From: Erodium maritimum | Taxonomy: Eukaryota > Streptophyta > Magnoliopsida > Geraniales > Geraniaceae | Assembly (NCBI GenBank): GCA_963921825.1 | Contig: OY997591.1 | Coordinates: forward strand, 52,801,031 to 52,865,030 | Length of the DNA stretch: 64,000 bases | Direction of reading: 5' to 3' | Shown: positions 11,314 through 64,000 of the stretch, piece after piece | Layout: each line of letters begins with the position of its first letter | How positions within the stretch are numbered: the stretch's first letter is position 1 | Translations under genes and position numbers: made by a program | The notes under the pieces: generated by a model | What the model saw: only the letters and a program-made list of their open reading frames with translations | Told to the model about the DNA's origin: nothing | The model's database searches: none

Positions 11314-11334
11314 TACATGGATAAGACTTAAGGT

Positions 11335-11895
11335 TTGGAACCGTACTAATTAGGTAGAATAATAAATCAGAACCCCACAAAAAATATTGTGTCTCACAAT
11401 GATGGGGTTCACTGTGGGGTTTATGATTCTGAGTGGATGTTAACTAAATGCTAAATTAATATTTTACTTAATTTAATAAATTTTGATTCAAAACAATAAG
11501 TACTAAAGAAAAGTGAAATTAAATTAATTAATAATAATAATAAATATAAATTGAAATTTCAAATTTATTCATCCCCGAATAATACAACCCAAAACACATT
11601 GACAAGACGGTTCTTACAAAGAAAAAGCTTTGTCACTCGTCTGATTCGAAATTCGCTCCAAAGCGATTTCATATGTGCTCAACAAGGTCATCGTGGAGTT
11701 GACGGTGTGTGCCATCGTTCAAGTGGTGTCCAATCAAGTATTTCCGAAGGGACTTCGTAATACAAATCTTCGTCTCCTTGTTTGTACCTGTCGCGCTCAT
11801 CCTCTACAATCATGTTGTGTAGAATGATACATGTGTGCATGATATTAGCCAAAACACTCCTGCTCCAAAGACCCCGGACATCTGTCGGTTGTAGT
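11335..11895 (-). pseudogene. PIF/Harbinger transposase C-terminal fragment (Plant_tran)
   Basis: On the minus strand from about 11885 the frame reads LWSRSVLANIMHTCIILHNM and VEDERDRY, the hallmark C-terminal block of plant Harbinger transposases, followed by LDWTPLERWHTPS. The N-terminal two thirds are absent: the upstream side joins a DUF4283-type ORF1 relic near 11,900. The 3' non-coding part (TTAGTTAACATCCACTCAGAATC on minus, about 11,445-11,420) matches the same region of the second Harbinger copy near 62,735-62,760, which confirms the family. DNA from about 11,370 to 11,422 can fold back (AACCCCACA...TGTGGGGTT) and may be the subterminal region. Confidence 0.8.
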
Positions 11896-12189
11896 CTCGG
11901 ACCCCACAATTGAAGTAGAAATTCGACAGTTTGGTGCAGGTCAAGGAGACTCGCACCGGGTCTGAAATTCTTGGAGCCACAACACTAGAGAGCAACATAG
12001 TGGTCAATATAGGGTCATCCAGAACCTCACCTTTAACGCTCCTCCACGGCGGAACCCCCATTGATCTTATTGGACGTCCACACATTCTCCTAAGGCTGTC
12101 CCGATGGACTCCCCATGACCTTTGTCCGGACTAACGGTGGTAAGCCCTTGGCATGGACCGAAAGTTGTAGTCGGTAAAGCTTGGGAAGA
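11896..12189 (-). pseudogene. DUF4283/zinc-knuckle ORF1 relic, C-terminal part
   Basis: The minus strand encodes LYRLQLSVHAKGLPPLVRT, then DPVRVSLTCTKLSNFYFNCG, a decayed zinc knuckle. The same order (L.LW.HA.GLPPLVR, then DPVRVS.TYTKLHSFCFNYG) is seen in the relic at 51,300-51,650. It is the continuation of the relic at 24,711-25,212, from which it is separated by the Ty3/gypsy insertion. Family knowledge: DUF4283 with a CCHC knuckle is typical of ORF1 in plant LINEs. The frame is broken and joins Harbinger sequence at its 3' side. Confidence 0.7.
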
Positions 12190-15112: not shown

Positions 15113-15124
15113 TGGTATCAGAGC
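15113..15124 (+). other. Primer binding site for initiator-Met tRNA
   Basis: TGGTATCAGAGC lies three bases inside the 5' LTR and is complementary to the 3' end of plant initiator methionine tRNA, the usual primer for minus-strand synthesis in this family. Confidence 0.95.
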
Positions 15125-20090: not shown

Positions 20091-20097
20091 GGTAGAC
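20084..20097 (+). other. Polypurine tract
   Basis: TAAGGGGGGTAGAC directly precedes the second LTR and is the expected plus-strand primer. The related minus-strand element has the equivalent tract just right of 47,687. Confidence 0.85.
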
Positions 20098-24710: not shown

Positions 24711-25212
24711 GAAGATCTCGTGACAATATGTCAATATCCCCAAGCATCAGAGGGTGACCATCAAAGTACCAGGTTTTGTTCCTTCGAACCCACTCCTGAT
24801 ATACATCTTGATGCCTCCACCCATCAGTTCGAGCTTTTGGTTTAGATATACCTGCTCGGCCCCGAGTGACCACAGGATGGTGTAGCGAGACCAGGACATG
24901 CAATGTCGTTCATCCCCAATTCTTCAAGGAATCAAGATCTTCTTGAAGGGTGGGGGTCATCGCCGGGAAAGGCATGCGTGGGGAAGAAGTTAGGGTTAAA
25001 GCCTTGACGGGACGACCCCTCTTCGATTTGAGAAAATCCGGCGAGGTTCGTCCCGGAGAGAACGTCACTATCACATTGGTCATCGAAGAAGGAGGTTCGA
25101 CCGTGATGACCGGTTGTGGAGACGGAGACGGGGAGGAAGAGGATGACTTTTTTTGCCTCTTCTTCCTTGCTATAAAGGGTCTGACGATCTCAGAGGATGG
25201 GCATGGTGACAT
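24711..25212 (-). pseudogene. DUF4283-type ORF1 relic, N-terminal part
   Basis: On the minus strand a 100-codon frame (25212-24910) is rich in serine, lysine and proline (MSPCPSSEIVRPFIARKKRQ), like the start of an ORF1 protein. After a stop, the reading near 24,770-24,715 is WVRRNKTWYFDGHPLMLGDI, which matches WVRSNEPWCFDGRPLLLGDL in the relic at 57.3 kb and runs on into 12,189. Between the two lies a short copia-like linker (PVVTRGRAGISKPK, about 24,870-24,829), so the relic is itself a patchwork. The Ty3/gypsy element inserted at its GAAGA site. Confidence 0.65.
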
Positions 25213-25284
25213 GACCAGTCCGGCAGACGAGGACCCCTTTATTTTATTGGTGTGAATGGAGGTACGGGAAGCCCTAATGGTGAA

Positions 25285-25770
25285 TGTTGAAGTGTGAGTC
25301 CCATATCAAAAGTGTGTGGATAAATTGACCCATTGATATACATCTTGATGCCTCCACCCATCATTTCGAGCTTTTGGTTTAGATACAAATCTTGGTACTC
25401 CATCTTCACCCGGGCCTTCTCCTGCGCATCTTCCTGTTTCGCCAGCGCCCAGCACCCTGGCCTAGTCCAGTCCGCCAACCTCACCCGACCCAGTTCCCTC
25501 GCCCGGCCCAACGGTCTCACCTGCCCTTGACTCATCCTCTCCGGTCTCGCGAGCTGCCTCGCCAAGCCCGCCCGTCTCTGGCCCAACCATCCCGGCCCAA
25601 TCCTCCTCACCTGATCCCGTACCAGCCCCACCACACCATCCTATGGTCACTCGGGGCCGAGCAGGTATATCTAAACCAAAAGCTCGAACTGATGGGTGGA
25701 GGCATCAAGATGTATATCAATGGGTCAATTTATCCACACACGTTTGATGTGAGACTCACACTTCAACAGT
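25285..25770. repeat. Inverted repeat, ~105-bp arms, ~275-bp loop
   Basis: The left arm (about 25,285-25,386) and the reverse complement of the right arm (about 25,662-25,770) agree apart from about five or six bases. Both share GTGTGTGGATAAATTGACCC and CATCTTGATGCCTCCACCCA. A third, partial copy in left-arm orientation lies at 24,790-24,888 and also matches the DNA just inside the right arm. A transcript through here could form a long hairpin. Confidence 0.88.
25390..25710 (+). mobile_element. Ty1/copia-like linker fragment
   Basis: A proline/serine-rich reading leads into PHHPMVTRGRAGISKPKA. That motif is characteristic of the linker between integrase and reverse transcriptase in Ty1/copia polyproteins. 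Only this fragment is visible, with no LTR or other domain nearby. It is a broken fossil piece. Confidence 0.55.
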
Positions 25771-25774
25771 GAAG

Positions 25775-26795
25775 CTGTCGGTGGCGTGGTAGTAGAGAAA
25801 ATAGGCGCTGACATAACTAAGACTGAGGCTAAGTTGAGACTAATAAACTTCTTAGAGAGGAGATCACACAAAATCGTAAAGTAAAAAATATATATTAATA
25901 GATCATGTATAAGACTCGAGATGAACGAGACAATTTTTCGTTCAATTCTATTTATATTATATAACTTTACAAGTTTAACATGAAAATCATCATGTAGTTT
26001 TGTGTTTGTAGTAAGCTCATATTTACCATTCCTCCAAAAGTCTATCTATTAATGAAGTATGAATACAAGCTGGATCTCCCTTGTTTGTACATTCTCCTTT
26101 GTGGGTTGATGGAGAAATAGTCAAGAAGTGGGATTATATCTGGTGAATGGGAAATTCATGCGAACGAAGTGAACAAATGTGGTTTGACGGTTAATGTTGA
26201 ACAAATGAGCTTAAGTCAACAACTATTATTTTGTCTTGAACACGTGTGATTTGAAACTTAGGATTGATGTAGGTGGTGTTATATTAATTTGAATAATAAT
26301 AATAATTAATTGACCTATAAGAAATTATAATGAGAAGAGAGATGTTTCGTACTTGTCTTGGACAGCAAGCAATGTTGTTGAGATGAGAGTTAAAGAGACG
26401 TGATAGACCCGAGATCGTGCATATATTCGTATCATCATAAGAATTGGTAGCTTTATTGAGTCAAAAGGTTCTTCATGGCATGTATTTCTCCATACCTTCC
26501 CTGGATCAGTTTAGACATTAATCTGGTCCAACATTTCATTAGTTATACATGTTTTCTATAGGTAAACTTGAAATATTGAAACCCTATCCAACAACTGATT
26601 TCATACTACACTAGTATTCGCCCACCCTTGACTTTGTTTTCATATCGTTGGTTATTTTCATATCAATTCTCTCCTATGACCTCTCTCAAGCCATTTTGAA
26701 ATGGAACCTAATATTAAAACCACTTTCAGTCTCTCATGATGGGTTTGCCTTATTAAACTTGCAAAACTAATTACTAACCAAAACAAAACCTAATC
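25775..26795. other. AT-rich spacer
   Basis: There is no reading frame over 60 codons, no recognised element end and no repeat. It is ordinary intergenic DNA as far as can be seen. Confidence 0.6.
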
Positions 26796-36625: not shown

Positions 36626-37650
36626 AAACTAGAATTGCGGAATCCATACCGTTCTTCAATCACGAGAACAAAAACATATGAACTTGGATCTTAGACTTGT
36701 ATTAATTTAACCACAATAAATATATTGATGCAAAAGAACTTACCCGAGTCCATCGTTGAATTCATGTGATCTTCAATTTTGTTTCTCCTCCTTAACCCCC
36801 TTCTCTGATGTTTCTGTTTTGATGGAGACAGAAACTTGTAACACATCATCCATAACCACATTTTCTTTCTTCTTTTATAATTAAATGATATAACATAACC
36901 ACCTTTCAGTTACCAAATTACATCCTTTGGTACAGTAGATAAATGAAATAACATTTAATTAATAATTAGGGATAATTCCACCTCAGTACCCTAAATCTTT
37001 CATATTTCATTTAGAGTACCCTAAATATTTTTTGTGTCACCTCGGTACCCTAAACTTTCATTAATTCATTTAAAGTACCCTAAATCTTTGTTGTGTCACC
37101 TCGGTACCCTAAACTTTTATTAATTCATTTCAGTACCCACCGTTAACTTTACATATGATTTTCCATCCAAAACATGTAAAATGACCATACTACCCCTTAC
37201 CAACAACCAAAATTATGGTAAAATTAACTGTGGGTACCAAAATGAAATTAATGAAAGTTTTGGGTACTAAAATGGAATTAATGAAAGTTTAGGGTACCGA
37301 GGTGACACAACAAAGATTTAGGGTACTTTAAATGAATTAATGAAAGTTTAGTGTACTGAGGTGACACAAAAAAGATTTAGGGTACTCTAAATGAAATATG
37401 AAAGATTTAGGGTACTGAGGTGGAATTAACCCTAATAACTATATGAGAAAGTAAATAATGCATATACTATAATGTTGGGTAAGGTAGGAGGGAATCATAA
37501 TTCCCGACTTTAATTACTTTTATCGAAACCGATCCATCAGGATGTCGACCATCATATTAAAGACTTATAATTTAATATGAATATGATATTTACATTACAT
37601 GATTAAATCTTATACACGAAGGCCACAATAATAATGTAAATATTCTTACA
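36626..37650 (-). repeat. Copia LTR (5' copy) carrying a MITE
   Basis: It matches the other LTR on both sides of the MITE. Without the 470-bp MITE and its 3-bp duplication it is about 552 bp long. Confidence 0.85.
36966..37435. mobile_element. Foldback MITE, Tourist-like (470 bp)
   Basis: It begins TTAGGGATAATTCCACC and ends with the inverted form (reverse complement TTAGGGTTAATTCCACC). The arms are inverted over most of the length, with sub-repeats containing GGTACCCTAAAC. The other copia LTR gives the empty site, showing duplication of TAA (36963-36965 and 37436-37438). Up to six bases, TAATAA, are compatible. A 3-bp T/A-rich duplication fits PIF/Harbinger-type MITEs; Harbinger relics are present in the window. 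It inserted after the copia element. Confidence 0.85.
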
Positions 37651-45105: not shown

Positions 45106-47687
45106 TGTCACGCCCCAAATCCGGTTCTTACCCGAACTCGAGGCATGACTTAGTAAAACATGAATGAAAGAGATAACGATTCAAAAATAGGTTCGTGAAA
45201 ACTCCAATAAGTAACTCAATCCATAAAATTCAGTGTAGAGTAAAGCAACCCTCCAGGGGTGTAATAATAAACCTCCACAAAAACTGTTCTTAAACAAAAA
45301 TAAATAAAAGTGAAGTCTCTACTGACACCCACACCGAGAAGCTCCCGAGCCTCTACTTCTCAATCAAGCCTGTAAACACAACAATGAACTCACAGGGGTG
45401 AGCTTACGCTCAGTAGGGAAAACACATAACAAGGTAAACCTTAAACTCCAAACAATCAACGGCAACGTCAACAAGATCCATAATTCAACAACACATTCAA
45501 CAAAGTAGTTCATAACAATAGGGGAAAAAGTAAACCAGCCAATGCCGTGGCACGTGAAGTCTCCACCCTCCGATCCACATAGGATGTGTCCTCTCGGATT
45601 TTCCCTCAAGTCCTGAGGAGACGCATAACATTGAGGCTACCGGAAACACCCTTCAGGGCCCATATCGTCGGCAGTCTCAGAAACGTCTCCAAAGGACTTT
45701 ATGTCCTCGGGAACCAAGGTATTACTCCCAAAGGAAGCATACACGCGGACCGTTCAATAATAATTAGTTAAATATTGAATAACGCACTCAACTGGAAACA
45801 CGAAACCAACCAATTCCAACAACCACCAATCCATTACCGCACATAGCTCACACATCACCAGTTCACCACAACACACAGTACACGAATCACATAACCATAG
45901 CACACCAAGCACACAATCCCAACTTACCGTTCACTTACCAGTTTCGAACCAACGGGGCATCGATCACCTGATTGCACCGCTCGGTACAACCAGTCATACT
46001 CGATGCTCCAAGCAACCATTTAAGCAAATCAAGTAATCGTTCAAATACAATCAACGATCAAGTACGAGCTTAATCAACCAATCATAAAAGCCTTCTAACG
46101 AGCATTCAAACATGCGATTCCACTAGTTCCATTAGACTCTTTAGCCTATCCACTAAGCAATCAACAACCAAGCATGTGATCCTAACACGCAACTAATCCG
46201 AGGGCTTTGCCAAGGCTCCTCTACCAGACAATCAATTCCCAAGTATTGAAAGCGAATTACACTAGTGATTGGCATCCTAATCGGTCACCACTAGACACTT
46301 CCGGTTATTAGTAATTGAAAGACGATTATGCTAGTTATTCGCATCCTATAGGCATTTCTAGGACCTTTCCAATTTTATTAACCTAGCATGCATACTAAGC
46401 ATCATAAACGAGAGGTTAAGGCTTTCCCTACCTCAAGGTCTTCCTCTCAACACTTTGATGAAGTCCGATGATCACCACTCCGTTCTTCACTCGGGTCCCG
46501 GCGTGATCCTTGCTCCTCTAGCTCGATCCCCAAAGTCTTGGACACAAAGAAACGATAATTAGACTCCACTTAAACAGCAAGAAAGGCTCCCAAAACCCTT
46601 CCAAAGTTCAGCTCAAAACCAAGGTGCAAAACCCTCAAGAAATCCCCAAGAAACCCCCACCCTGGTCTGCCACGGACCTGGTCACGGATCCGTGAGGCTG
46701 ACCATCACGGTTACCATCACGGAGCCGTGACGAGTGCCGTCACGGACTCCCTCACGGAGCCGTGACGTCGCCCGTCACGGGATCCGTCACGGATCCGTGG
46801 CGTACCAGAGCAGTTTCGCCCTTCTTCAACCTCCAGCTCCTTTTTTCCGAAAAACCACCTTCAAACCTAGAATTTTACCCCTTCCAACTCCCAAAACAGT
46901 CCAAATCCTTCAATACTCCTCTACCCATGGTACGAATCAACACACAAACAAGTTTCCAATGATTCATCAAATCAAACCCAACTCAAAAGCTCCAACAAAC
47001 CAATGATTTCTCATCAAAAAATCCAACAAAGCTTCTCATCAACAACATCTCCCACCATTTCTACTCAAACCCAACAACATCTAGCAATTTCACCCAAAAC
47101 CCATGAAAAGAGATGAAGAGAAATGAGGATTAGAGAGTTCCATTACCTCTAGAATGTTGAGATGAAGAAGATGGTAGTGATTTTGAGGAGGAAAGGCTAG
47201 AGGAAGACTTCAAGTGGCCTCTTCTTCCTTGATTTTCCTTCAAGGCTCCATGGGAGCTCTTCTCCCTTGCTCCTCCTCTAATTTTCGGCTACACCAAGAT
47301 AGAAATGAATTGATTTTGCTTCTCCAATCTCATATAATACCTACATGTAGCAATGACCTAAAAGCCCTTGGGCTAGATTCCCTTGTAGTAGCTTTTGGGA
47401 GGGTAAAAGGGACTATGACTATCCCTTTTTCTCTCTTTCAACCAAAAGAAGACAAGTGTCCACCTAGGTCATTTAATTTTCCAAAATAATTTCCAGCATT
47501 TTAAAAATAATGCTTTTAGTCGATAAAAAGTCTCGTTTTGACCAAAATTGACTTTCTTCAATATTATACTCAAACGAAAGGGATTTCTCCCCTGAAGCCA
47601 ACCGTGATGATGGCTAATTCGTTTGGGTTCCGGAAAAGTCCCGAGTGACTTCTTGAGTCATCGGTTTGACCGGAAGCGGGTCTTACA
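45106..47687 (-). repeat. LTR (2,582 bp) of the partial Ty3/gypsy element
   Basis: On plus it starts TGTCACGCCCCAAATCCGG and ends GGTCTTACA. It is related to the 3.1-kb solo LTR and to the 2.9-kb LTRs, but distinct in length and sequence. It contains a palindrome cluster at 46,681-46,803. Confidence 0.88.
46681..46803. repeat. Cluster of CACGGA.CCGTGA palindromes in LTR
   Basis: At least four near-perfect palindromes of the form TCACGGATCCGTGA or TCACGGAGCCGTGA, plus half-sites, lie within 123 bp. They sit about 0.9-1.0 kb from the LTR start in element orientation. Confidence 0.88.
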
Positions 47688-47721
47688 ATCTACCCCCCTT
47701 AAAAAAATTTCGTCCTCGAAA

Positions 47722-50128
47722 TTAAAAACAAGGTACCTCAATGTCGAACAGGTGGGGATACTTCACGCGGATCTCATCTTCGCGCTCCCAAGTGGACCCG
47801 GCTCCCTGATGTCCCCACTGTACTAGTACCAACGGAATCGTCTTGTTCCGCAGGATCTTCTCCTTCGTACCCAAAATCTCGACGGGCTGCTCCTCATAAG
47901 TGACATCATCTGCTATCTCGATGTCTAACCACTCAATGATGTGCGAAGGGTCTGCCATGTACTTCCGCAGTTGGGACACATGGAAAACGTTATGCACGTT
48001 CCCAAGCTGCGGTGGCAAGGCCAAACGATAAGCTACAACTCCAATCTTCTCCAAAACCTCTAATGGTCCAACAAAACGTGGTGCTAGCTTGCCTCCACTG
48101 CATCTAAACCGTACTAGACCCTTCTTTGGGCTCACCTTCAGGAACACATGCTCTCCGACAGTGAACTCAAGGGGTCTGCGACGCCTGTCTGCGTAGCTCT
48201 TCTGCCGACTCTGTGCGGTCTTCAGCCGCTCTCTAATCAAAGTGACCTTCTCGGTCGTCTCCCTGATCATGTCTGGCCCAAGTAAGCTCCTGTCCCCAAC
48301 CTCAGCCCAACATACCGGCGATCTACAGGGTCTGCCATACAAGGCCTCAAATGGTGCCATACCAATGTTGGACTGATAACTGTTGTTGTAGGCAAACTCT
48401 GCCAAAGGCAAATGATCCTCCCATGATCCCTGAAAGTCAAGCACATAAGCTCGAAGCATGTCCTCTAGAATCTGAATGGTGCGCTCTGACTGTCCATCTG
48501 TCTCAGGATGGTAAGCTGTACTCAACATTACCTCAGTGCCCAAGGCCTTCTGTAGACTCTTCCAGAACCTGGATGTGAAACGGGGGTCTCTATGCGATAC
48601 CACTGACACGGGTACACCGTGTAGACGAACAATCTCCCTGACATACAAACGACCCAACATGTCCACAGAATCAGTCATCCTCATACCCAGAAAGTGTGCC
48701 GACTTGGTCAGTCGATCAACCACCACCCAAACAACGTCGTGCCCCTTCGACGACCTGGGCAACCCACACACAAAATCCATAGTCACGTGCTCCCACTTCC
48801 ACTCAGAGATCGGTAAAGGCTGTAGCAAGCCTGCGGGACGCATGTGCTCGGCCTTCACCTGTTGGCAGGTAAGGCATCGAGAAACGAAATCTGCAACTGC
48901 CCCACGCATCCCACTCCACCAAAACTGTCGTCGCATGTCTCTATACATCTTGTTGCCACCGGGGCGCACAACCAGACGGGAGTGGTGGCACTCACGCAAT
49001 ACAGTGTCTCTGTACTCACTGGGTACAAACAGTCGTCCTCTAAAGCGGATACCCTGGTCGGTGCCCAACTCCCAGCCCTCGAGCTCGATACCCTCCATCA
49101 ATCTCTCCCGAATCCCCGCTGCCTCGGCGTCCTCGGTCTGTGCCTCCAGCACTCGAGCAAAAAGTGAGGGTTGAGCCACTAAGGCACACAAGGCCATACC
49201 CTCTGTGACCTCCTCCAACTCCAGTCTGAATAAGCTCAACTGCTCCAGCATGTCCCACTCTCGGACTGCCATGCTGGCAACGCAGTGACTCGACTTCCTG
49301 CTCAAAGCATCGGCGACCACGTTCGCCTTGCCCGGATGATAGAGCAACTCGAAGTCGTACTCCTCAAGTAGCTCCATCCATCGCCTTTGGCACATGTTCA
49401 GATCACGCTGCGAGAAGATATACTTGAGGCTCTTGTGGTCTGAAAACACCCTGAACTGCTCACCGTACATATAATGTCTCCAGCTCTTCAGCGCAAATAC
49501 CACCGCTACTAGCTCAAGATTGTAGGTCGGGTAGTTGCGCTCATGCACCTTCAACTGCCTCGAGCCGTAAGCAACCACCTTCCCTCCCTGCATCAGAACA
49601 CAACCTAGCCCTTCGCCTGAGGCGTCACAATACACGTCATAGCCTACTCCCCGCTCTGGAACAACCAACACTGGAGCGGTAGTCAATTGAGCCTTTAGCT
49701 CGCAGAAAGAGTGTTCACACTCATCAGTCCAAAGGTACTCTGCTCCCTTGCGGGTCAAAGCGGTCATAGGTGCTGCAAGGCGGGAGAACTCCTGAACGAA
49801 GCGCCGATAATAACCTGCCAACCCGAGAAAACTCCGAATCTCAAATACACTGCTGGGCCTCGCCCACTTCGACACTGCCTCAACCTTGGCTGGGTCGACC
49901 AAGATGCCCTCCCGAGATACCACGTTCCCAAGGAACTTCACCTCTATGAGCCAAAATTCGCACTTCTCCAGATTGCCGTACAACTGGTGAGTGCGTAAGA
50001 GTGTCAGAACGGTCCGTATGTGCTCCTCATGCGCCTCCTCACTGGGCGAGTAGATCAAGATGTCATCGACGAAGACTACTACAAACTGGTCTAGATAAGG
50101 TCTGAAGATGACATTCATCAAGTCCATA
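47722..50128 (-). mobile_element. pol region: part of RT, RNase H, integrase, chromodomain
   Basis: Reading leftward from 50,128: reverse transcriptase from FVDDILIYS onward, RNase H ([18 protein letters not shown]), integrase finger and core ([31 protein letters not shown]), and chromodomain ([19 protein letters not shown]). The protein parts closely resemble those of the element at 17-20 kb, so both belong to related chromovirus lineages. It is a partial fossil. Confidence 0.93.
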
Positions 50129-50169
50129 AAGGAAAATGGTCTAATGGAACGTTATCTCTTATGATATTT

Positions 50170-52367
50170 AATACAAACTTAGTTATTAATACTTTTTTTC
50201 TCTCGTTGTGTTCGAGTCTCTCTTCTAAGGAAACCCTAGCCCTTGATATTTTTTAGAGATCTTTGTCATCGTCGCCGACAAGTCTGCATGTAATGTCGAT
50301 TTTGTTCCTTCGCCGCCTGGAATGCATTTCTTGGCACTTGTTCCGCCCCCTCGCCCATCCTCAAACTTGTGCCTCCCTTAAAGCCTCGACGTCGAAGGAG
50401 ACCGAAGTAAACCCTATCTGGGAAAGCTTCTTCGATTACTCTTCCCCCACCGTCCGCCATTATACCGCTACCGCCATCCACGGCTATCATGGGTTTTTCT
50501 CCGGGGTTCTCTACTCCGTTAGTAAGGCCACGAAGAAGCCTTCCGTTCAAAACCACATTTGTTGCTTCCTTTACCAGAAACCTTCTGGACAAGGATCCTT
50601 ATTCCGTTCCACCGCCATCAGTTACCCTTAAAGATGTCTCGACAACCGTGGGTCTCAGCGCCGCTCCTCCGACCATGGTTGTGCCCAACATCACTCTACT
50701 GCCACCAGTTGCTCGTGCCGAGGTCCCGCCGCCTCCATTGTGTCGGGACCCGCTTCGTGGGAAGGCACCCATAATAGAGCCCGAGAGGGAGGAATTGGAG
50801 GAACTCTGTGATGGGGTTGTGATCCCTAATGTGGTGCAGGTTCACTAATCCCGACCTTTCTTACTACGCCTCTGGGCATGGTTCATCGTCGCCGGGAGTT
50901 CAAGCCATGGGAAGCCGATTCTACTTCAGGGATAACGGTTTCGCTGGACTCTCTTGAGTCAAACATGGCCAGTCTCCAAGACGGCTTCTCTTCGTGTTCG
51001 CAAGAAGAGGAGGACGAGTTGGAGGTCCTGGTCCCGTACTCTCTGGTGAGCCCTTCGGTTATGGCCCACCAACAATTTGCCATGATGGGTAAACTTTGGG
51101 TTTCAAAGCCTCCGTAGAAGGAGGTTCTACTCCAAATCATCAACAAAGCATGTTGTAGATCTGCGGAGGGCTTGGTGATCAAGGACATAGGCCCTAGAGT
51201 TTTCGGGTTCTATTTCGAGTTGGAGGAGGCTCGTGATTGGGTCTAGGGTAACGAGCCTTGGTGCTTCGGTTTACGGCTGCTCCTACTAGGAGAATTGGAC
51301 CTGATGCCTAGGGAACCTTCTACTCTGGATTGGCTACAACTATGGGCTCATGCCCATGGCCTCCCTCCATTGGTACGGATCCCGAGCGACTGAAGAAACG
51401 ATTGGCTCACTCTTAGGTTATGTGTCACTGTCTCGTGTGACCAATGAGGTCTCTGCTGGGGAAGAGCGGTGAAAGTGAGGTTCTGGAACCTCGAGAAGTG
51501 TCCCCTATGCCATGACCTGCTGCTATTTTTCAGGGAATTTCCGGATCCGGTAAGGGTCTCGATCACCTACACAAAGTTGCATTCCTTTTGTTTTAACTAT
51601 GGGCTGATCGAACATGTAGTCCAAGAATACGACAGGGAGAGGGTAAGTACCCCATGATTTGATTCGTCTATGATGGATTTCTAGAAGGATAGAAGCGTCA
51701 AGCCGTATGCTACTAACTAGGGGCCTAAAGGGTCCAGGAGCCTACCATCCAAGGACGGACCCGTATCCCTGAAGACTGTACCTCAAGGCACCTTGACTCG
51801 AGGAAGGGGTCCAATTGTATCCTCAAGTCCTCGGGGAGACATCCAGGCCATGAAAGTTGACCCCGACTAGAAAAACTTGGTGGTCGGCCAGCTCTTTACT
51901 AGTTAGAAAACCAAAATTTCAGTTCAACCAGGGCATAGAGAAGGAGCTGGAGCTGGAACTGGAGCTGGAGCTTGTGCTAGGGGATGATCATGCGAGAGCG
52001 GATAAGCAACCCCGTCAAGAAGAATGTTAGGATACTCTAGCTTTAGGGAATGGCTCCAGGAGGGGTCCCAGGTTAAAGCCATGCCTCGTACAACTGATGC
52101 ATTTCAAGTTTGGTCGCTTTGCCCCCTAGTCGCAGCATGTAGGCACTACCTTGAGCAGGACTTCCAATTTCGTTATTCAACCCCTACCTTCCTTCAAGCC
52201 TATGTGGCGTCTCAATACCGTTGTTAACAGTTATATTGTTAAAGGAACTATGGACAATTATGTTTTATGTCTGTTCTTTTTTAGTGGTCAGGAATATTAT
52301 TCATAACGTAATCGTTTGTAGTTGATTTTGAAGTTTAACAAAATTGCACTTTTTAGTCAAAAATAAA
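50170..52367 (+). mobile_element. ORF1-only LINE-type retroposon (copy b)
   Basis: A perfect 16-bp target duplication, ATCTCTTATGATATTT, lies at 50154-50169 and 52368-52383. The 3' end is A-rich (AGTCAAAAATAAA). The body has a decayed ORF1 (DUF4283-type block and zinc knuckle) and a T-rich 3' UTR, and no endonuclease or reverse transcriptase. At 2.2 kb it is far shorter than a LINE. Its 3' UTR aligns with copy d (58,200-58,450), e.g. TTTTATGTCTGTTCTTTTTT against TTCTGTGTCTGTTTTTTCTT, so this deleted structure has multiplied as a family. Confidence 0.85.
50292..51655 (+). pseudogene. ORF1 with DUF4283-type core and zinc knuckle (copy b)
   Basis: The N-terminal part is proline-rich (near 50,640-50,840: PPVARAEVPPPPLCRDPLRG). 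The core, at about 50,960-51,390, reads MASLQDGFSSCSQEEEDELE, then DIGPRVFGFYFELEEARDWV and LDWLQLWAHAHGLPPLVRIP. The zinc knuckle at about 51,585-51,630 is CFNYGLIEHVVQEY, in which a second and a fourth ligand cysteine are tyrosine. Several stops and at least two frame changes break it. Known role of such proteins: binding element RNA in the LINE ribonucleoprotein. Start is uncertain; an ATG at 50,292 follows the GC-rich leader. Confidence 0.7.
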
Positions 52368-52389
52368 ATCTCTTATGATATTTTGTCTT

Positions 52390-54309
52390 TGATGCCAACG
52401 TGAACCATTAATACATCTAATGATGAAAATTCAAGTTCTCGTGTGTCTTACTCCTCCTTTAATGAATATCTCTAGCCATAACTATAGTCACCTACTGATA
52501 TTAACTATTTCGTCGCCCACTCCACTAATGGTGATCACCACGCCTCACTCTCTACCAATGGTGGTCATTAATCCACCTGACCTCATCATGCCCTTCCTCC
52601 GAAGTTGTCCGTCCGGTTAGAGCAACAAGGAAGAGGAACCCAAAACCACTTCCCTTTGCTTTACTTTCGATGTTGGTCAATCCAGTTGAGCCACCGACTA
52701 CGAAAGAATCTGATCTGGTGGTCTTCTCCCCTTGTCATACCTTATCGACGTTTGTGTCAACAAACACAAAACGGGGATGCCTACCTAGGGTTTCCTCCCA
52801 CACGCCACCACAAGCTTTAGCACCAGGGGTTGCGCCTCTACCGAAGGATGAACCTGAATCTTTGATGACAGAGGCCTCTCAGATCAGGGATGACCTTCGA
52901 CCACTATAATAGCCACCCACCTTGTCTTTCACCTCTCCTACCATGAGTGAAACAACTCTTAAACCCGGTTAGGGTTTCAGCTTCTAAGAGACAACGCCTT
53001 CACAGGCTCCGCCATCATCAATGGAGACTCTCTATAAGATGTGTTCTCGGGATTCTCCATCACAGAGGATGAGGAAATTGAGATCATGGTCTTTTCTTTT
53101 CAGTGGACCCAATAGTTTTTGCCCGCAAGTGTTTTCGAAAGGTTGGAAATCTACTTGCAACAACGCTTCCTCAGAAGGATTTCATTCCTAAGATCAGTAC
53201 GAGGGAATGGGGACAATCAGCTTCGTGTCTAATAGTTAAAGACTTGGAACTAAGTGTCTATGCATTCTATTTTATATCCCAGAAGGCTAGAGTTTGGGTT
53301 TGTAAGAATGAACCTCAGTGTTTCAACGACTACCTGTTGCTGGTAGGGGATATTGTGGATCCAATGGAAATGGATCTCTCTAAACTAGATCGCCTCCAAC
53401 TATGGGTGCTTAACAGGGGCCGTCCGTCATTTGTTCGGGCAAAACCTATTAGGGAGGTCATTAGAGCAGTTGTGGGGTAATGCGTGGACGTCTTGTGTGA
53501 CCAGTGGGGATCCTGTTGGGGAGGAACAATGAAGGTTCGATTATGGATGGAGCTCAATCGTCCTCTACGACAGATAATGGTCATGTGATTCTGGAAATTT
53601 TCGGAACCGATTAGAGTTACCGTGACGCATGCCAGACTGCCCATGTTCTGCTATAATTATGACTGCAACAGGCATGTGGCACATGATTGTGATCGGCAGA
53701 TGCCAAGGGTACCCAGATTTGATAAATCCCTCATGGAATTCAAACCGGGCAAGCTGGGTCGACACCATGCCACTAACTAGGGTATAGAGGAAATGGAGTC
53801 GGCATATCATGTAAGATTTGTCCCGTTCACCTCGAACACTATACCTAAGGGCTTTTATCTCAAGGAATGAGGCCAATTGTAACCCTGAATAGTCTACATA
53901 ACATCCGGGTAAGGTTGGAGGGGATCAATGAGCACGGGATTTCTTCATTGCAAGAGGGTCATAACTCAGCGATTGGGTCTGACAGTCCTTCATGGATTGT
54001 CCCATATGAAACGATAGGAAATAAGAGATGGTCTATAGGGGAACCCCATGAAGATTAGGCGATGGCAGGTAAGCAGCCTTGCCAGAAGGACTGTTAGAAA
54101 CCCGAGGCTTCTGGGGCTTTTCTATGGAGGGGTCCTTAGTGCAAGCCCGTCCTCCCATTACTACTATTGAGTCTAGGTTCGATCTCGTTCCTTACGACAA
54201 AAAGAGTCCTCCCCATGGGATCAAATAGCATTAAGGCACCATCTTGAGCGATTCTCTGAAGTTTGTTAGTTCTGTTAGCTTTACATGATATTTCAAAAGT
54301 TGTTTCTGG
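52390..54309 (+). mobile_element. ORF1-bearing retroposon relic (copy c)
   Basis: It directly follows copy b in the same orientation. The body has a DUF4283-type core (53,100-53,480) and a zinc knuckle (53,640-53,690). A later segment near 54,065 (GCAGGTAAGCAGCC) aligns with copy d (CTGGTAAGCAGCA, near 58,110) and copy b (CGGATAAGCAACC, near 51,998). The 3' end is unlike b and d, so it may be truncated by the next element at 54,310. Boundaries are approximate. Confidence 0.6.
53103..53790 (+). pseudogene. ORF1 DUF4283-type core and zinc knuckle (copy c)
   Basis: A 125-codon open stretch (53,103-53,480) contains SASCLIVKDLELSVYAFYFI and VWVCKNEPQCFNDYLLLVGD, then LDRLQLWVLNRGRPSFVRAK, matching copies b and d in order. 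After frame changes a knuckle reads CYNYDCNRHVAHDC (CX2CX4HX4C spacing with the second ligand tyrosine). The longest open core of the four relics is here, but no full-length frame survives. Confidence 0.65.
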
Positions 54310-56095
54310 TTTTTTTGATCGACAAAGCAAATATTATAAATCTCACCCATTTAGATATTGAATTGGACAGACCAATTACTGATTTCTAGCAACAGAAATC
54401 AAAGATATCAAGAAACAAGGATCGTACAAAGGATCCACCAAGTACAACAAATATGTCTAGTTACTAAATTGGTCAAACATGAAGTACAAGGAAGCCAATA
54501 AGGGCTGTAAAAGGTCTAAAACCCTTATTTGTCAACCATGAAACCCAAAAAAGAAAGCCGACCACCACTTAAAACACCATAAACCTTACCATAGTTGAGA
54601 AAACACTATATCTCATCGGAGTCTAAACTCTGAGAGTTGAAGGGCACTGACACGTTGGTGGTCAACACCGCTTAACGGTACAGATAGACCAATGATAAAA
54701 ATCACCGAAACTCAAAACCTAAAGAAACATAAACCCCTTGATTTCCAACAATTGTCCACAGACTAGGAACAACACGTCAAAGGCCATCACCTATATAAAT
54801 TGACGCCCCCACCAACTGTAGTTAAGAAAACAAAAGAAATCGAAACGAATCTAAATCTAGGAAATAAAATGTTCTCAACAAGTAGCAGATAAAGAAAAAT
54901 ATATAACGAGATCCTTACTAACCACGACAGCAAGTGGCGAGACTAGATCCATAACGAATCAAAGACCCAACAGGTCAATAAACGCTTCACACTGTAGATC
55001 GGAAAAGAGTCGCATTTTCTAAAAGCACGGTCAAAGTCGCTGCACCTATGAACCAAACACCACCTCAGCAACGCGAAGACTTGTGAGGTGCGAACATAAG
55101 AGACAAAGCAGGAACCAAAACAAACCCACAAAAGCAGCATGACCAGATCAACAACAATCAACATCCGACAAGATGAAGAAATGCATCCCACGGTCATATC
55201 TGAAAGGAGCCGCCGTTAGAGACTGGAGCTAAGCACCACCATCACTACCCCGAGGAGCAGATCTACAATAAATTAAGCTACACCGATGGACAACACCCTA
55301 AAACCGATGACCAGAGCCATCTCTAGGCCGCAAATATGCCTTCCACTAAGCACCTCCAAAAGCAAGGGCGGACCGACTTTAGCGAGCCAAGAGCACGAAC
55401 TCTAATAGAGGGCAGCCACATCCCCGGACACCGGTAGCAAAGAACTCTATTGGGAAACACCCTACCCGAGATTCCAAAACTAACCTAAAACAACGAAAAT
55501 GACCGATTCACTAGTTGCAACAACCACCATACAACCAAATTACCAACCAACAACCTACTCCATAATACAAAGAACAGGTGAGTAAAGAAAAAAATCGATT
55601 TCAGATTTAGTATAGGACTTCACCGAGATGGCGAGGGAGAAGCACGTACATGCTGCGTTAAGCAACGACTAACACACATATGTACGGCCTGAACTAGTCG
55701 GACCGACCAAATCAAAGCACGATCAAGATCTGAATTGTACTCGACCGGAGAGCTCCACCTGACTAAGGCCAAGAGGCCAGATCTATTGCGGCTGAAAGAA
55801 CAACTGGGCTTGGACGAAGGAGGTAGCGAGATTCGGACCTCAGCCACCACCACCAGAGATCGATAGAGCCATAACTCTAGACATCAGAGCTGATGGGGAC
55901 ACGAGCTCCAGCACACCATGAAGTCGCCGAACTCCAAGCATGGAGATCAATGCATCTTATCGGCGTTAGAGTGACAAGCAGAGGGAAAGCATGGGGAGAA
56001 AAGGGAGGGGAAGCTAAGGTCACAACTGGAGACGTCTATGACCGGAAGTCGTGGCACCGCCGATGGAAGAAGAGCATGAAAAGAGGGGGTTAGGG
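54310..56095 (-). mobile_element. Non-autonomous retroposon (R8)
   Basis: The minus strand ends TTTGTCGATCAAAAAAA (T-run 54,310-54,316 on plus) after a long T-rich 3' UTR, and begins near 56,095 with a GC-rich leader (CCCCCTCTTTTCATGCTC). Short minus frames (55,853-55,620; 55,197-54,943) show no domain. The 3' end resembles the TTTGATCAAAAAAA end of the LINE at 5,501. No secure target duplication was seen. Confidence 0.6.
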
Positions 56096-56344
56096 ATTTC
56101 ACTGTTCACGAAGAGACAAAAAACTGTAGGAAAAGGTTATAAGAGAGATGCAAATTAACTAGATAAAATCGTTTGTGATTACGGTTAATGGTCTCTTTTT
56201 CTTGAATTATTAGTACGTATAGTTTATGTTTCTTTAGACAGGTTATTCTATATGTTTTAGGACGTCACATTATCGTTCATTTCTTTTCGCCAGACATAAA
56301 AGTAAAAAATCGTGTAAAGTGATACGATAAGAAAAGTTATACTG

Positions 56345-58447
56345 AAAAAAATCTCTCTCGCGTCTCGTGAGCATACCCTAGCCCTAGTCTATGCGATTAT
56401 GGTGCTCTCTAGCCTTGTCTCTATCATTGACACCATCACTGACGATGTTGCTGCAACCACTATCGGCTCTGTCATGTCTTCTCCGGTGCAGCTTTCTCAC
56501 TCGAAGACCTCACTCTGTCCTCCTGAGGCGGTTCCACCTTTATAGGCCCAGCGTAGGAGGAAGCCAAAGAAAACCCTAACAGGGCTTCTCTCTGCGCCTC
56601 CTTCTCTTTCGGTGGAACCGCTACTGCTTCCACTCTCGACGGCCTTGGTGCCCTTTGCGATGGGTGCCGCCACACCATCCCCTATAGGGAAACCATGTAG
56701 AGGCGACCGGTAAGGGCTATGATCGTTGCTTCGTCCTTAAGAAACCCCCTTTCGCCTCTTCCTCCACCACTTATGTCCATATGCTCTCCTGTTTCTCCTG
56801 CTCCCCATGTTCCTATTCCTCGCGTTGAGGCCGATCCTCCTTCCATCCCTTTACCGCAACGGGGCCCGGCCCATGGGAAAGCCTCGGTTGTTGATTCCCC
56901 AAGGTTGACCGTGGAAGCTTTGGGTGTGGGTCATTAGATTCCTAACAAGGATCGGATTCCGCTCATCCCCTCCCTTCTCACTGCACCAACTGGAATGATT
57001 CGTGGTCGGAAGGTGGCTCAATCCTCGGAGGCCCCCCCATCGCCCACGACTTTGGTTGTGCCGGATCTGTTGGCCTCAATGGTATCGCTTCAACATTGGC
57101 TCTCGTCTTGTTCTCTCAAGGAGAATGAAGAGGTAGAGGTTGTTATCCCATACCCCCGGGTCAACTCCTCTGTCCTCGTGGCCAGCAGTTCGGGTTGGTG
57201 GGCAGGCTATGCGAACCAAGGCATCCCAAGAAGGATGTTCTTCTCCTTACCATCACCACTGCATGTGGGCGGTCTGCGGAGGGCCTGGTCATCACAGATA
57301 TTGGTCCGAGTACTTTCGACTTCTATTTTAGGACGACAGAGGCTCGAGCCTGGGTCCGGAGTAATGAACCCTGGTGTTTCGACGGACGCCCCCTTTTGCT
57401 CGGAGACCTAGACCGAGAACTTCATATGTTAGAGCGGTTGAAACTATGGGTCCACGCCCGAAAGCGACAGGCAAAACGATCGACGATACGTTCGGGGCTT
57501 GTGTGGAGCTCCCCTGTGACTAATGGAGGATGTGCTGGGGAGATGTTGTGCACGTATGCTACTGAAATCTCGTGGAACGCCCTCTCTGGTGGGGACTTCT
57601 ACTACGGTTCAATGAATTCCCGGACCCCATGACGTATGAATTCACATATACGAATCTCCCAACCTTATGTTTCAACTGTGAGAGGATCAGCCATGTTGTT
57701 TAGGAATGTGAGCTAGAGCTGCAGGTTACCCCGAGGTATGATCCCTCTATTGTGGAGTATCAAAAGTACAAGAAGGTCCAGTCCTATGCAATAGACTAGA
57801 AAGAGAGCTCACTGTCGACCATACCACCAGACTTTGGGACTTTATCCCCGAGGACTGTATCTAAGGGTCCTCGTCTCGTGGGAGGAGCCTGTGTGTTTCC
57901 CCGAGCACTATATCTAAGGATACAGAACCTCGAGTCAACACCCAGGCAGGGGAGGTTGATCCCGATTGGAAAAATTTGTTGATCGGCCAGCTCTCTGCTG
58001 GTAGGGTCACTAAAGTTTCGGCGCCCATTCTGCTTAGGAACAAAGATGTTGAAGGAGATGCTACTAGAGGAGTTAAGAGGACCGTTGTTGGTGCTCCCTG
58101 GGATGATCAGGCGAGAGCTGGTAAGCAGCATCGACATGAGGGATGTTTGGATCCTCAGACTTTAGGGACTGGTTGTGAGATAGGTTCTTGGTGAAAGCCT
58201 TGCCTCCTACTAGTGATGCAGTACATGCCCAGACATTAGAGCAGGACTTCAAGTTTCTTTCTCCTTACCCCACCTTTCCCTCCTGCTTATGTGTCGTCTC
58301 GGTATCGTCTGACGATTATAGTATTACAAGAACTACAAACGATTTTGTTCTGTGTCTGTTTTTTCTTAGTGATCGAAGGAGATATTTCCTGTCATACATT
58401 TATTTAGTTTGAAATCTGATTAATAAAATTATATCTTTCAATAAAAA
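56345..58447 (+). mobile_element. ORF1-only LINE-type retroposon (copy d)
   Basis: It shares its overall order and 3' UTR with copy b: leader with ATACCCTAGCCCTAG, ORF1 relic, then CTCCTACTAGTGATGCAGTA, TCTCGGTATCGTCTG, and a 3' end of TCTTTCAATAAAAAAAG. A weak target duplication may exist (AAGAAAAGTTATACT before, AAGAAAATATATTAT after). No reverse transcriptase. Confidence 0.75.
56719..57740 (+). pseudogene. ORF1 with DUF4283-type core and zinc knuckle (copy d)
   Basis: A proline-rich part (56,719-56,937; QRGPAHGKA near its end aligns with CRDPLRGKA of copy b) is followed by a core at about 57,260-57,470: SAEGLVITDIGPSTFDFYF, WVRSNEPWCFDGRPLLLGDL, LERLKLWVHA. The zinc knuckle at about 57,668-57,710 reads CFNCERISHVV, a stop, then EC; all four zinc ligands (C, C, H, C) are kept. 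In-frame stops (after GVGH near 56,937 and in the knuckle) and a frame change near 57,200 break it. It is the best reference for the family. Confidence 0.75.
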
Positions 58448-58624
58448 AAGAAAATATATTATAATTTAGATTTCTCTTCACATGATACTATGAAAAAATA
58501 AATAGTATTTTTCCAAAACTAATATGTATGTTCCGAATATAATGAGTATTTCAAAGAAAGATACACTCCAAACATTAATGATACCGTTTATAAATACAAA
58601 ATATAGAGATATTTACATGGGGTG

Positions 58625-61242: not shown

Positions 61243-62545
61243 ATGTCTGACAAGGAGGGACCATCGTATGAAGAGTTGGCAGCTCAAATGCATTTAGTGG
61301 AAGAACGGCTCTAGCGAAGGGTTGAGAGAGGCATATAGAGAGCAATGCCAAGGATCAACGCACTGTGGCAGATGATCGAACATGGGGAACCTTCTTGATG
61401 ATAGATTCATAGAGGTCGTCTCGAAGCCCACGATCGACTAATGCAAGATTATTTTGTCGATCAGCCCACGTATGGGCCCGATATGTTTAGGCGTCGCTTC
61501 CGTATGTGCCGACCACTTTTTTAACGGATGATGAACAAGATAGCGGAGCATGGGGATTACTTCATTCAGAAGTGGGATGTTGTGGGACGCTTGAGGTTAT
61601 CAACGCACCAAAAATACACCGCCTCGATACGGATGCTTGCGCATGGGTGCTCGACCGATTCGTTGGACGAATCCCTACGAATTGCGGTAATTACCATACT
61701 CGAATGTGTACGACACTTTTGCAAGGACTTTGTTGAGGTGTTCGGGGTTGAGTACGAGCGTACACTCATACTGGATACCTTGACCTGATTACTCGAATCG
61801 GGGTACAACCGAGGGTTCCCCGACCTGGTTGGGAGTCTTAACTACATGCATTGGGAGTGAAATAATTTCCCAACCGCATCGCAAGAGCCCATGGTCGGGG
61901 AGATCACCACGAGGATTCCGCCATTATGCTAGAAGTTGTAGTATCCCGTGATTTATGGATTTGGCATTCCTTTTTTGGGATGGATTGCTCGAACAACGAC
62001 ATCAACGTCCTCAACAACAACCACTTATTCCACGAAAATTTTATGGCCGTGAGCTTTCCGTGGAGTACGAAATCAACGGCCATCGTTACGATCGCCCTTA
62101 TTATTTGGTGGACGACATTTACCCATCATGGAGTCGGTTCGTGAAGTCTATTCACCATGCCTATACTCGCAAAAAAAAATTGTTTGATAAAGTTTAAGAA
62201 GTTTGTCGGAAAGATATTGAACGGGATTTCGGAGTCCTCCAAGCCTGGTAGCACATCATTTCTCGTCCAGCTCGTGTTTGGAGCAAGTATACTTTTGTTG
62301 ATATCATGCACGCTTATATCATTCCGAAGCAGGAGATAACGAGTTGTTGTACGATCCCCCTCCAGAAATGCCAAGTTGGACACTATCAGAACGATGGCAC
62401 TAAAGAGGACCTTGGCCTACCGAGACCGCTTGACTTCTTGACTCTTAGTGTTACGAGTGATCGGACCCACCGGCAACTACAAGATGACCTTATTGAGCAC
62501 ATATGAGGTCGATTTGGAGCGCATTACCATTCTGATGACGAGTAA
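61243..62545 (+). pseudogene. Harbinger (Plant_tran) DDE transposase
   Basis: The ATG opens MSDKEGPSYEELAAQM. Recognisable blocks follow: PYFVDQPTYGPDMFRRRFRM, then LSTHQKYTASIRMLAHG, LIESGYNRGFP-like LLESGYNRGFPDLVGSLNYM (the first catalytic position, normally D in GSIDCMHW, is N), WIWHSFFG with DINVL (second D kept), YPSWSRFVKSIHHAY, RKDIERDFGVLQAW (E kept), VWSKYTFVDIMHAYII and PEMPSWTLSERWH. Stops (for example after EERL near 61,312 and before LLESG near 61,790) and frame changes (near 61,930, 62,040 and 62,190) make it dead. The active enzyme cuts and pastes the element, usually with a separate Myb-like partner, which is not seen here. Confidence 0.88.
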
Positions 62546-62873
62546 AGAAATCTTTTTATATGCAACACTTGTTTACTTGATGTTATTATTTGGGGATGAA
62601 TAAAATTATAAGTTTCAATTTATTTTAATTTATGTTATTATTAATTATTTTAGTCAAATTTATTTAAATTTATATAACATTTACTATTTCAATAAATACT
62701 TTAATAAAATCAGCAAAATATCAATTCAACATTTAGTCAACATCCACTCACAATCCAGTTCCCTACTTGGTTGTCACCAATGTGGAACATAGTTAAATTC
62801 AGAGGCTGGGAACCACTATTTTGCACAATCAGCATACGGTTCCCTTATACAGCTCTTTCAATTGTACATGCTC

Positions 62874-63345
62874 TTAGGGATAATTTCACTTCAGTACGTT
62901 AAATCTTTTATATTTTATTTAGAGTTCCCCAAATCTTTTTTATGTCACCTCAATACCCTAAGCTTTCAATAATTCGTTTAGAGTACCTTAAATCTTTTTT
63001 TGTGTCACCTCAGTACTTTAAACTTTCATTAATTTCATTTTAGTACCTACCGTTGACTTTACCCTAAAATTGGTTGCTAGTGAAGAGTATTATGGTCATT
63101 TCACCTATTTTGGATGCAAACCCAGATGAAAAGTTAACAGTAGGTACTACAATGGAATTAATGAAATTTTAGGGTACTAAGGTGACACAAAAAAGATTTA
63201 GGTTACTCTTAATGAATTAATGAAAATTTAGGGTACTGAGGTGACACAAAAAAGTTTTAGGGTACTCTAAATGAAATATGAAAGATTTAGGACACTCTAA
63301 ATGAATTAATGAAAGATTTAAGGTACTGAGGTGAAATTACCCTTT
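62874..63345. mobile_element. Foldback MITE, same family as 36,966
   Basis: The left end TTAGGGATAATTTCACTTCAG and the inverted right end (reverse complement AAAGGGTAATTTCACCTCAG) enclose repeated blocks with TTTAGGGTACTGAGGTGACA. It is more diverged than the 36,966 copy; the flanking duplication is not clear. Confidence 0.8.
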
Positions 63346-63445
63346 ATTCCGATCAATTTATGTTTGGGGAGAAGCAAATTACTACTTTAAAAAGTGTATT
63401 TTTTTAGTGATGCTTAATTTTTATATATATATACAATGAGATTAT

Positions 63446-64000
63446 GTTTTTTTAATAGAGAGATGTATTTTGTTGATAATGAAAAAGAGTCAATACAATG
63501 TTTGGGGCCCTAAAAGATCTCTTAATAAAAAACTCTGAGACAAGTTGACCATTTAAGACGGTATGTAAAGAGCCATATAGGAGAACAAAAATTAAAATAC
63601 AAAACTGATGAGGACTGCTCAAGGTGGTGCCTTAACGTTGCTTTATCCCAAGGAGATGACTCTTTTCGTCGTGTGGAGTGCGACCGAAGCTGAACTCATC
63701 AATATCACGGGGAGGATAGGCTTTAGCCAGGGACCCCTGCTTAGGTTGGCCCCTGAAGCCACGAGTGTCTATCATTCCTTCTAGCGGGGCTGTTTTTGAG
63801 CCCATGACTATTCTTCACAAGGCTTTCCCATAATGTCCTTCTTCAAGCCCAGCGTCACAGATGGGACAAGTAGCGCCCTAGATGTGACATGCAGCCTCCC
63901 AAATGGGTCAGGACTCCTCCCAAATGGGTCAGGCCCAACAACCCCTCCCATGGACGTCGCACCGTCAAGGTCAGACTCTAGATGGAGATTCACCGACCAC
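63446..64000 (-). mobile_element. Retroposon 3' end running off the right edge (R11)
   Basis: The minus strand ends ACATCTCTCTATTAAAAAAA (T-run 63,446-63,452 on plus) after a T-rich 3' UTR. A 61-codon minus frame (63,993-63,808) includes a short in-tandem duplication (DPFGRSPDPFGR; CCCAAATGGGTCAGG twice on plus). The family is not determined. Confidence 0.5.

What the first reader, a model, noticed from the sequence alone, without database searches (positions are those of the whole stretch)
50170..58447. Family of ORF1-only, reverse-transcriptase-free LINE-type retroposons
Copies b (50,170-52,367) and d (56,345-58,447) share ORF1 blocks and 3' UTR; copy c (52,390-54,309) and the relic at 11,896-12,189 plus 24,711-25,212 share the DUF4283-type core and zinc knuckle. 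None has an endonuclease or reverse transcriptase, yet copy b has a 16-bp target duplication and an A-rich tail. Established: plant LINEs carry DUF4283/CCHC ORF1 upstream of ORF2. Inference: a LINE derivative keeping only its RNA-binding ORF1 spread in trans, possibly using its own ORF1 product to hold its RNA.
Basis: partly seen in the sequence, partly recalled or inferred. Interest (0 to 1): 0.75.

Follow-up and report, generated by a model that had tools for sequence, protein, structure and literature searches.

The report
ORF1-only LINE relatives in a plant
Several decayed plant jumping-gene copies carry only the RNA-binding first gene of a LINE and a shared tail region but no copying enzyme, so they probably spread by borrowing another element's enzymes, much as the 'half-L1' elements of mammals do.

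Summary
The core observation holds. Copies b and d are homologous from ORF1 to the A-rich 3' end, with no endonuclease or reverse transcriptase family in six frames. DUF4283 is detected in b, d and (weakly) c, a CCHC knuckle in d. b has a perfect 16-bp target duplication. New: of 18 stop positions in the aligned ORF1 core, one (b 51718) is shared by b, c and d, so ORF1 ended there and about 650 nt follow. Upstream, b-d differences have a coding signature (codon positions 74, 60 and 134 of 226). Downstream there is none, yet divergence (199 of 599) is far below that of fourfold sites (38 of 55). A further copy, e (minus strand, window end), shares part of that downstream region with c. Corrections: the relic is on the minus strand, meets a PIF/Harbinger piece after the knuckle, and does not support the claimed anatomy; an RT-bearing LINE relic does lie in the window but does not match b-e. 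Best reading: a plant analogue of mammalian HAL1, mobilised in trans. No plant genome was held, so copy number, donor LINE and a single ORF1-only ancestry stay untested.

The parts
50154..50169 (+). left copy of the 16-bp target site duplication of b
   Evidence: exact match to 52368-52383
50170..52367 (+). copy b, 2198 bp: 5' region, ORF1, about 650-nt 3' region, short A-rich tail
   Evidence: bounded by the duplication; homologous to d from ORF1 to the 3' end
50293..51720 (+). b ORF1 (decayed; start ATG inferred, frameshift near 50850); ends at the TAG shared by b, c and d at 51718-51720
   Evidence: shared stop, 65 codon signature in 50863-51720; 50296-50850 does not show it in the core frame
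51127..51369 (+). DUF4283 in b
   Evidence: Pfam PF14111 E 4.6e-5
51721..52367 (+). conserved 3' region and 3' UTR of b without detectable coding signature
52368..52383 (+). right copy of the 16-bp target site duplication of b
52407..54309 (+). copy c; start placed by a weak alignment with the 5' end of b (33 of 1000 shuffles as good, 1 of 1000); breaks off where element g begins
   Evidence: DUF4283 E 0.063 at 53190-53486
63447..64000 (-). copy e (3' end only, runs off the window): part of the region downstream of ORF1, 3' UTR and A-run at 63447-63453
   Evidence: 72.6% to c over 179 nt; tblastx to c E 1.3e-21; A-run
24711..25209 (-). relic a, 5' part: ORF1 N-terminal part and start of the DUF4283 core
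   Evidence: tblastx to b, c and d; Pfam itself found no DUF4283 here
11891..12182 (-). relic a, continuation to the knuckle; split from its 5' part by the LTR element at 12183-24711
   Evidence: Plant_tran follows at 11787-11870

Best explanation
b, c, d and e are decayed members of a group of non-autonomous, LINE-derived retroposons of a plant. The element is a Pol II-type transcript (inferred) with a short 5' region, one ORF (ORF1, DUF4283 plus CCHC, about 475 codons), about 650 nt of non-coding but conserved 3' region, and an A-rich end. Its RNA was copied into new sites by target-primed reverse transcription, using the endonuclease and reverse transcriptase of an L1-clade LINE supplied in trans. 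Shown: ORF1-to-3'-end homology of b and d, with part of the post-ORF1 region also in c and e; no ORF2 domain detected; a shared ORF1 stop; past purifying selection on ORF1; a 3' region far less diverged than ORF1 silent sites; the target duplication of b. Inferred: the trans donor; that the conserved 3' region is what the donor enzyme recognises; that ORF1 protein helped its own RNA; that the common ancestor of these copies already lacked ORF2.
For: Colinear b-d homology from ORF1 to the 3' end. No EN or RT family in six frames, with an RT positive control in the same window. One of 18 stop positions in the core is shared by b, c and d, marking the ORF1 end. b-d upstream of it, 226 codons in gap-free blocks: 74, 60 and 134 differences by codon position, fourfold sites 38 of 55; downstream 199 of 599 differ, last part 47 of 133 (Fisher against fourfold sites 3e-7 and 3e-5); shuffled d sequence under the same aligner gives a mean of 0.505, minimum 0.386 in 40 trials, against 0.353 observed. 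No significant codon periodicity downstream (p 0.21). 16-bp duplication of b. c-e similarity downstream of the ORF1 stop, with e ending in an A-run.
Against: Only b has a proven insertion boundary. Full 3' UTRs of b or d and of e do not align significantly (630 and 90 of 1000 shuffles as good), so one group-wide 3' UTR is not shown; only the last ~58 nt are weakly alike (b-e 18, d-e 3 of 500; ten pairs tested, uncorrected, A-run included). c-e: not significant in a global test (329 of 1000), significant locally over 41 nt (0 of 1000). 5' ends are not clearly homologous: b-d 234 and 151 of 1000, c-d 177 and 102 of 1000. No donor LINE with the same 3' end was found; the LINE relics in the window do not match b-e. 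No stable fold was seen in the 3' region.
Confidence: 0.6

Rival explanations
1. Each copy is a separate by-product of ordinary full-length LINEs that lost ORF2 by splicing, template switching or internal deletion between the ORF1 end and the 3' region; there is no ORF1-only lineage.
For: The selection seen on ORF1 could have acted in ORF2-bearing ancestors. Spliced human L1 insertions (SpIREs) are known (PMC5860796, search listing and start of abstract only). R2-derived internally deleted elements are known (PMC3414825, search listing and start of abstract only).
Against: b and d align across about 650 nt after the ORF1 stop to the end, so they would need the same junction; c and e share part of that region too. 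No ORF2 domain was detected next to b, c or d.
Confidence: 0.22
2. b, c and d are processed pseudogenes of a host gene family with DUF4283 and a zinc knuckle (a domesticated ORF1), retrocopied by LINEs.
For: DUF4283 is over-represented among plant pseudogenes in three of five species in a table passage of PMC7935947 (passages read). A target duplication and an A-tail fit retrocopies equally well.
Against: Core DNA distances of 0.38 to 0.51 between b, c, d and relic a need many diverged source genes. Four or five copies in 64 kb fit a mobile family better than rare retrocopies (inference).
Confidence: 0.12
3. LINE RNAs were prematurely polyadenylated inside ORF2 and retrotransposed, giving ORF1 plus the start of ORF2.
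For: b and d end at equivalent A-rich sites, and AATAAA occurs near the end of d.
Against: The 650 nt after ORF1 show no endonuclease domain in any frame (no positive control for that domain) and no codon periodicity.
Confidence: 0.05

Closest known systems
HAL1 (half-L1) of mammals
   Same: Non-autonomous L1 derivative encoding only ORF1p, arisen independently several times (PMC5753468, passages read; the primary paper, Bao and Jurka 2010, is not held); likely moved by L1 machinery (PMC4161310, passages).
   Different: Mammalian ORF1p is a coiled-coil trimer with RRM and C-terminal domains (recalled); here ORF1 is of the plant DUF4283/CCHC type. A conserved region of about 650 nt without coding signature follows ORF1.
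Plant L1-clade LINEs such as Celine of poplar
   Same: ORF1 with DUF4283; target duplications of 10 to 30 bp, mean 15; short poly(A) tail (PMC11288735, passages).
   Different: Celine is 6.1 kb with a 3.8-kb ORF2; b and d are about 2.1 to 2.2 kb and have no detectable ORF2.
Sadhu retroposons of Arabidopsis
   Same: Non-autonomous plant retroposons with a poly(A) tract and 7-16 bp target duplications, old and diverged (PMC2848041, passages).
   Different: Sadhu is about 900 bp and non-coding; here ORF1 was coding and selected.
EKA family of powdery mildew
   Same: Very many ORF1-derived copies of a LINE (PMC4641428, abstract and outline only).
   Different: Fungal; described in the abstract as truncated LINE copies recruited as effector genes, not as ORF1-only units spreading as a family.

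Membership tests
Plant L1-clade LINE (full element) | ORF1 with DUF4283 and a CCHC knuckle | tested here: met
   DUF4283 in b, d and weakly c; knuckle by Pfam in d only; all below gathering score
Plant L1-clade LINE (full element) | ORF2 with endonuclease and reverse transcriptase | tested here: not met
   no such family in six frames of b, c and d; RT positive control found in the same window
Plant L1-clade LINE (full element) | target duplication and A-rich 3' end | tested here: met
   b: 16-bp exact duplication, tail of about 10 nt. d: tail but no convincing duplication. c and e not testable
ORF1-only LINE derivative (HAL1-like) | ORF1 followed directly by the 3' end, same structure in several copies | tested here: met
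   b and d from ORF1 to the end; c and e for part of the post-ORF1 region only
ORF1-only LINE derivative (HAL1-like) | many genomic copies with the same boundaries | not testable with these tools
   no host genome held; no confirmed relatives in prokaryote, viral or plasmid collections
ORF1-only LINE derivative (HAL1-like) | 3' end shared with a donor LINE | tested here: inconclusive
   no similarity to the two LINE relics in the window; last ~60 nt weakly like the LINE ending near 5500: b 27, d 15, e 184 of 500 shuffles as good
HAL1 proper (mammalian) | descent from mammalian L1 with its coiled-coil ORF1p | tested here: not met
   ORF1 is of the DUF4283/CCHC type
Processed pseudogene of a host gene | intron-bearing parent gene | not testable with these tools
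   no host genome held

The most novel reading that the evidence does not exclude
A long-lived plant lineage of LINE derivatives that dropped ORF2 but kept ORF1 under purifying selection together with a conserved non-coding 3' region: a plant counterpart of mammalian HAL1, evolved independently and with an unrelated ORF1 protein. That would suggest that keeping ORF1 while borrowing ORF2 is a recurrent strategy.
Probability: 0.35. Interest if true: 0.55.

Novelty: new variant of a known kind. Interest (0 to 1): 0.4.

Why it matters
If ORF1-only lineages arose in both mammals and plants with unrelated ORF1 proteins, ORF1 gives an RNA some advantage even when the copying enzyme comes from elsewhere. 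That is testable by dN/dS on ORF1-only clades. It would also help explain why plant annotations hold DUF4283 genes and pseudogenes without a neighbouring reverse transcriptase (the last point is recalled, not tested here).

Tried and rejected
Relatives: alignment A1 was not accepted by the search for related loci as it is not conserved enough. A single 77-aa stretch of d found nothing in genome contigs (328 pattern matches, 0 confirmed) or viral contigs (10 pattern matches, 0 confirmed). The b protein had no match in plasmids. PDB gave one chance-level hit, E 0.61.

RNA structure in the 3' region: six stretches of b, c, d and e gave z-scores from -1.16 to +1.56, no signal. Rfam: 0 matches in the window at gathering score. 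NCBIfam: none in four + strand frames of b, c and d.

A fold of the b DUF4283 core (3 sequences) had mean pLDDT 55.6, so no fold search was made.

Looking for the rest of c beyond element g: not found (583 of 1000 shuffles as good). Target duplication for d, c or g: none convincing. A motif scan for LINE ORF2, using motif patterns recalled from memory, gave 8 hits (3 in the reversed control) and led to the LINE at 7-10 kb. Window-wide tblastx (at most 25 rows printed per query) gave, beside matches among a-e, two short pieces in linked groups, b to 29479-29520 (14 aa) and c to 474-533 (20 aa), which I take as chance; the ORF2 LINE, the RRM LINE and g matched nothing else. Pfam coverage is partial: 1-3000, 5200-11200, 11200-12182, 24711-25800 and 62400-64000 were scanned on the minus strand only; 50170-58602 on both; the rest not at all. 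The tail test of e stopped 18 nt short of its true end and was redone. The codon totals (118, 88 and 175 of 332) mixed in codons after the ORF1 stop; one search gives the upstream part alone.

Papers: nine searches (one search was swamped by mathematics papers) listed no ORF1-only plant LINE family among the titles and abstract starts that I saw, which are a capped part of each result; paywalled work and Repbase were not searchable.
Full report
Setting. The window is plant-type DNA, judged from its repeats: LTR elements, LINE relics, a PIF/Harbinger piece. No host genome is held, so everything below rests on the window, family libraries and papers.

Observation. b (50170-52367) and d (56345-58447) share colinear DNA blocks in the ORF1 core, after the knuckle, and into the 3' end. 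DUF4283 is found in b (E 4.6e-5), d (0.018) and weakly c (0.063), and zf-CCHC_4 in d (0.0012), when stops are read as X. All are under Pfam's gathering scores, but the copies match each other by tblastx far more strongly: b-d 3.9e-85, b-c 1e-41, c-d 3e-35. No endonuclease or reverse transcriptase family appears in six frames of the b-c and d regions or of the stretch between c and d. The same method finds RVT_1 and zf-RVT in another decayed LINE at 7007-8858, minus strand, so it can see such domains when decayed; the endonuclease itself has no positive control here.

Insertion hallmarks. b is flanked by an exact 16-bp duplication, 50154-50169 and 52368-52383. The site reads GTT|ATCT; TT|A at the nick resembles the L1-type preference (recalled; the Sadhu paper mentions a thymine at the nick for Arabidopsis SINEs). 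The tail of b is short, about 10 nt. d ends in an A-rich stretch but has no convincing duplication. c breaks off at 54309 where another element begins, and e runs off the window, so neither can be tested.

Where ORF1 ends. In the columns of b's core frame, 18 codon positions carry a stop in at least one of b, c, d and relic a. Sixteen are in one copy only. One (51391) is a stop in both b and c, with different codons in an ambiguously aligned part. One (51718) is TAG in b, c and d alike; relic a lacks this part. I take it as the ancestral end of ORF1. Downstream of it b has 647 nt and d 648 nt before the end. This region has no significant codon signature between b and d (0.342/0.283/0.401 over 51721-52226, p 0.21), whereas 50863-51720 has 0.333/0.278/0.564. 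In gap-free in-frame blocks upstream of the stop (226 codons) 74, 60 and 134 positions differ, and 38 of 55 fourfold sites, close to saturation. After the stop 199 of 599 aligned sites differ, and 47 of 133 in the last part; Fisher p against fourfold sites 3e-7 and 3e-5. Gapped alignment favours the non-coding part, but shuffled sequence under the same aligner gives 0.505 on average (minimum 0.386 in 40 trials) against 0.353 observed. So ORF1 was under purifying selection, and the 3' region was also constrained or was exchanged more recently between lineages. The N-terminal part (50296-50850) shows no such signature in the core frame (0.585/0.458/0.429, p 0.096); b has a frameshift near 50850, so another frame applies there, which I did not test. 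No stable fold was found in the 3' region.

Other copies. c matches b and d over the ORF1 core and carries the shared stop. Its region after ORF1 matches a further copy, e, at 63617-63795 on the minus strand, 72.6% over 179 nt. e continues to an A-run at 63447-63453. The full 3' UTRs of e and of b or d do not align significantly (630 and 90 of 1000 shuffles as good), though the last ~58 nt of b, d and e are weakly alike (b-e 18, d-e 3, b-d 15 of 500; ten pairs tested). So there may be two 3' UTR types with a similar terminus. Between c and e, a global test of the last part was not significant (329 of 1000), while a local test found 41 nt (0 of 1000). Relic a is on the minus strand, split by an LTR element whose two LTRs are 99.85% alike over 2644 bp. 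Just after the knuckle it meets the C-terminal end of a PIF/Harbinger transposase (Plant_tran), so it says nothing about an ORF1-to-3'-end structure.

Mechanism. The anatomy needs enzymes in trans. Plant L1-clade LINEs encode ORF1 with DUF4283 and an ORF2 with endonuclease and reverse transcriptase; Celine leaves 10-30 bp duplications (PMC11288735, passages). Almost all flowering-plant L1-clade LINEs end in poly(A), and one lineage seems to need a specific 3' end (PMC3747384, passages). A donor of that kind is the natural source, but none sharing the 3' end is in the window: the two LINE relics there give no match to b-e apart from a 15-nt chance-level hit, and only weak similarity of the last ~60 nt. 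b has 5 core stops of its own plus one ambiguous, and a frameshift, while all 32 bases of its duplication are unchanged. With 4.4% of random changes making a stop (recalled figure), six stops imply about 16% decay, for which an unchanged duplication has p about 0.004. So b may have been copied from an already broken source. Methylation-driven decay could explain part of this, since the duplication holds no CG or CHG site.

Comparison. It works like HAL1, the ORF1-only derivative of mammalian L1 that arose several times (PMC5753468, passages), but it cannot be a HAL1 by descent, because ORF1 is of the plant type. It is not a full LINE, since no ORF2 was detected. It is not Sadhu, which is non-coding (PMC2848041, passages). 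I saw no report of an ORF1-only plant LINE family in searches, of which I saw titles and abstract starts of capped lists; DUF4283-rich pseudogene sets are reported (PMC7935947, passages).

Verdict. A real, old and decayed ORF1-only retroposon group is likely. Whether it was one lineage living without ORF2 for a long time, or repeated loss from full LINEs, needs the host genome. Interest is moderate: the kind is known in mammals, and the plant version with a selected ORF1 and a conserved 3' region is the new part.

Noticed in passing
window 7007-8858, minus (3' end near 5500): Decayed LINE ORF2 with RVT_1 and zf-RVT; seemingly 5'-truncated near 9.9 kb; ends in ...CTCTTTGATCAAAAAAA.
   Followed up: partly
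window 318-1057, minus: ORF1 of an RRM-type LINE (RRM_1 E 1.8e-11 followed by a DUF4283 end, E 6e-4) running off the left edge of the window; a different ORF1 type from b, c and d.
   Followed up: partly
window 12183-24711: LTR retrotransposon with nearly identical long LTRs, inserted in relic a; its second LTR copy appears interrupted by about 1.7 kb (22734-24421).
   Followed up: no
window 11787-11870, minus, and 11425-11716/62459-62755: Relic a is joined to the C-terminal end of a PIF/Harbinger transposase; the stretch 11425-11716, just downstream of that piece, also matches 62459-62755 at 71.5%.
   Followed up: partly
window 54310-56110, minus: Element g of about 1.8 kb without Pfam match, ending ...GCTTTGTCGATCAAAAAAA exactly where c breaks off; possibly another non-autonomous retroposon. 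Its last ~59 nt resemble those of the LINE ending near 5500 (5 of 500 shuffles as good).
   Followed up: partly
window 47666-50130, minus: Ty3/gypsy pol open over 809 codons but losing homology at about 50130, some 24 nt before the duplication of b; related to the copy at 17650-20119 (74%).
   Followed up: no
window 36965-37436 and 62874-63291: Inverted-repeat elements built of repeats of AGTACCCTAAA type, about 80% alike between the two sites.
   Followed up: no
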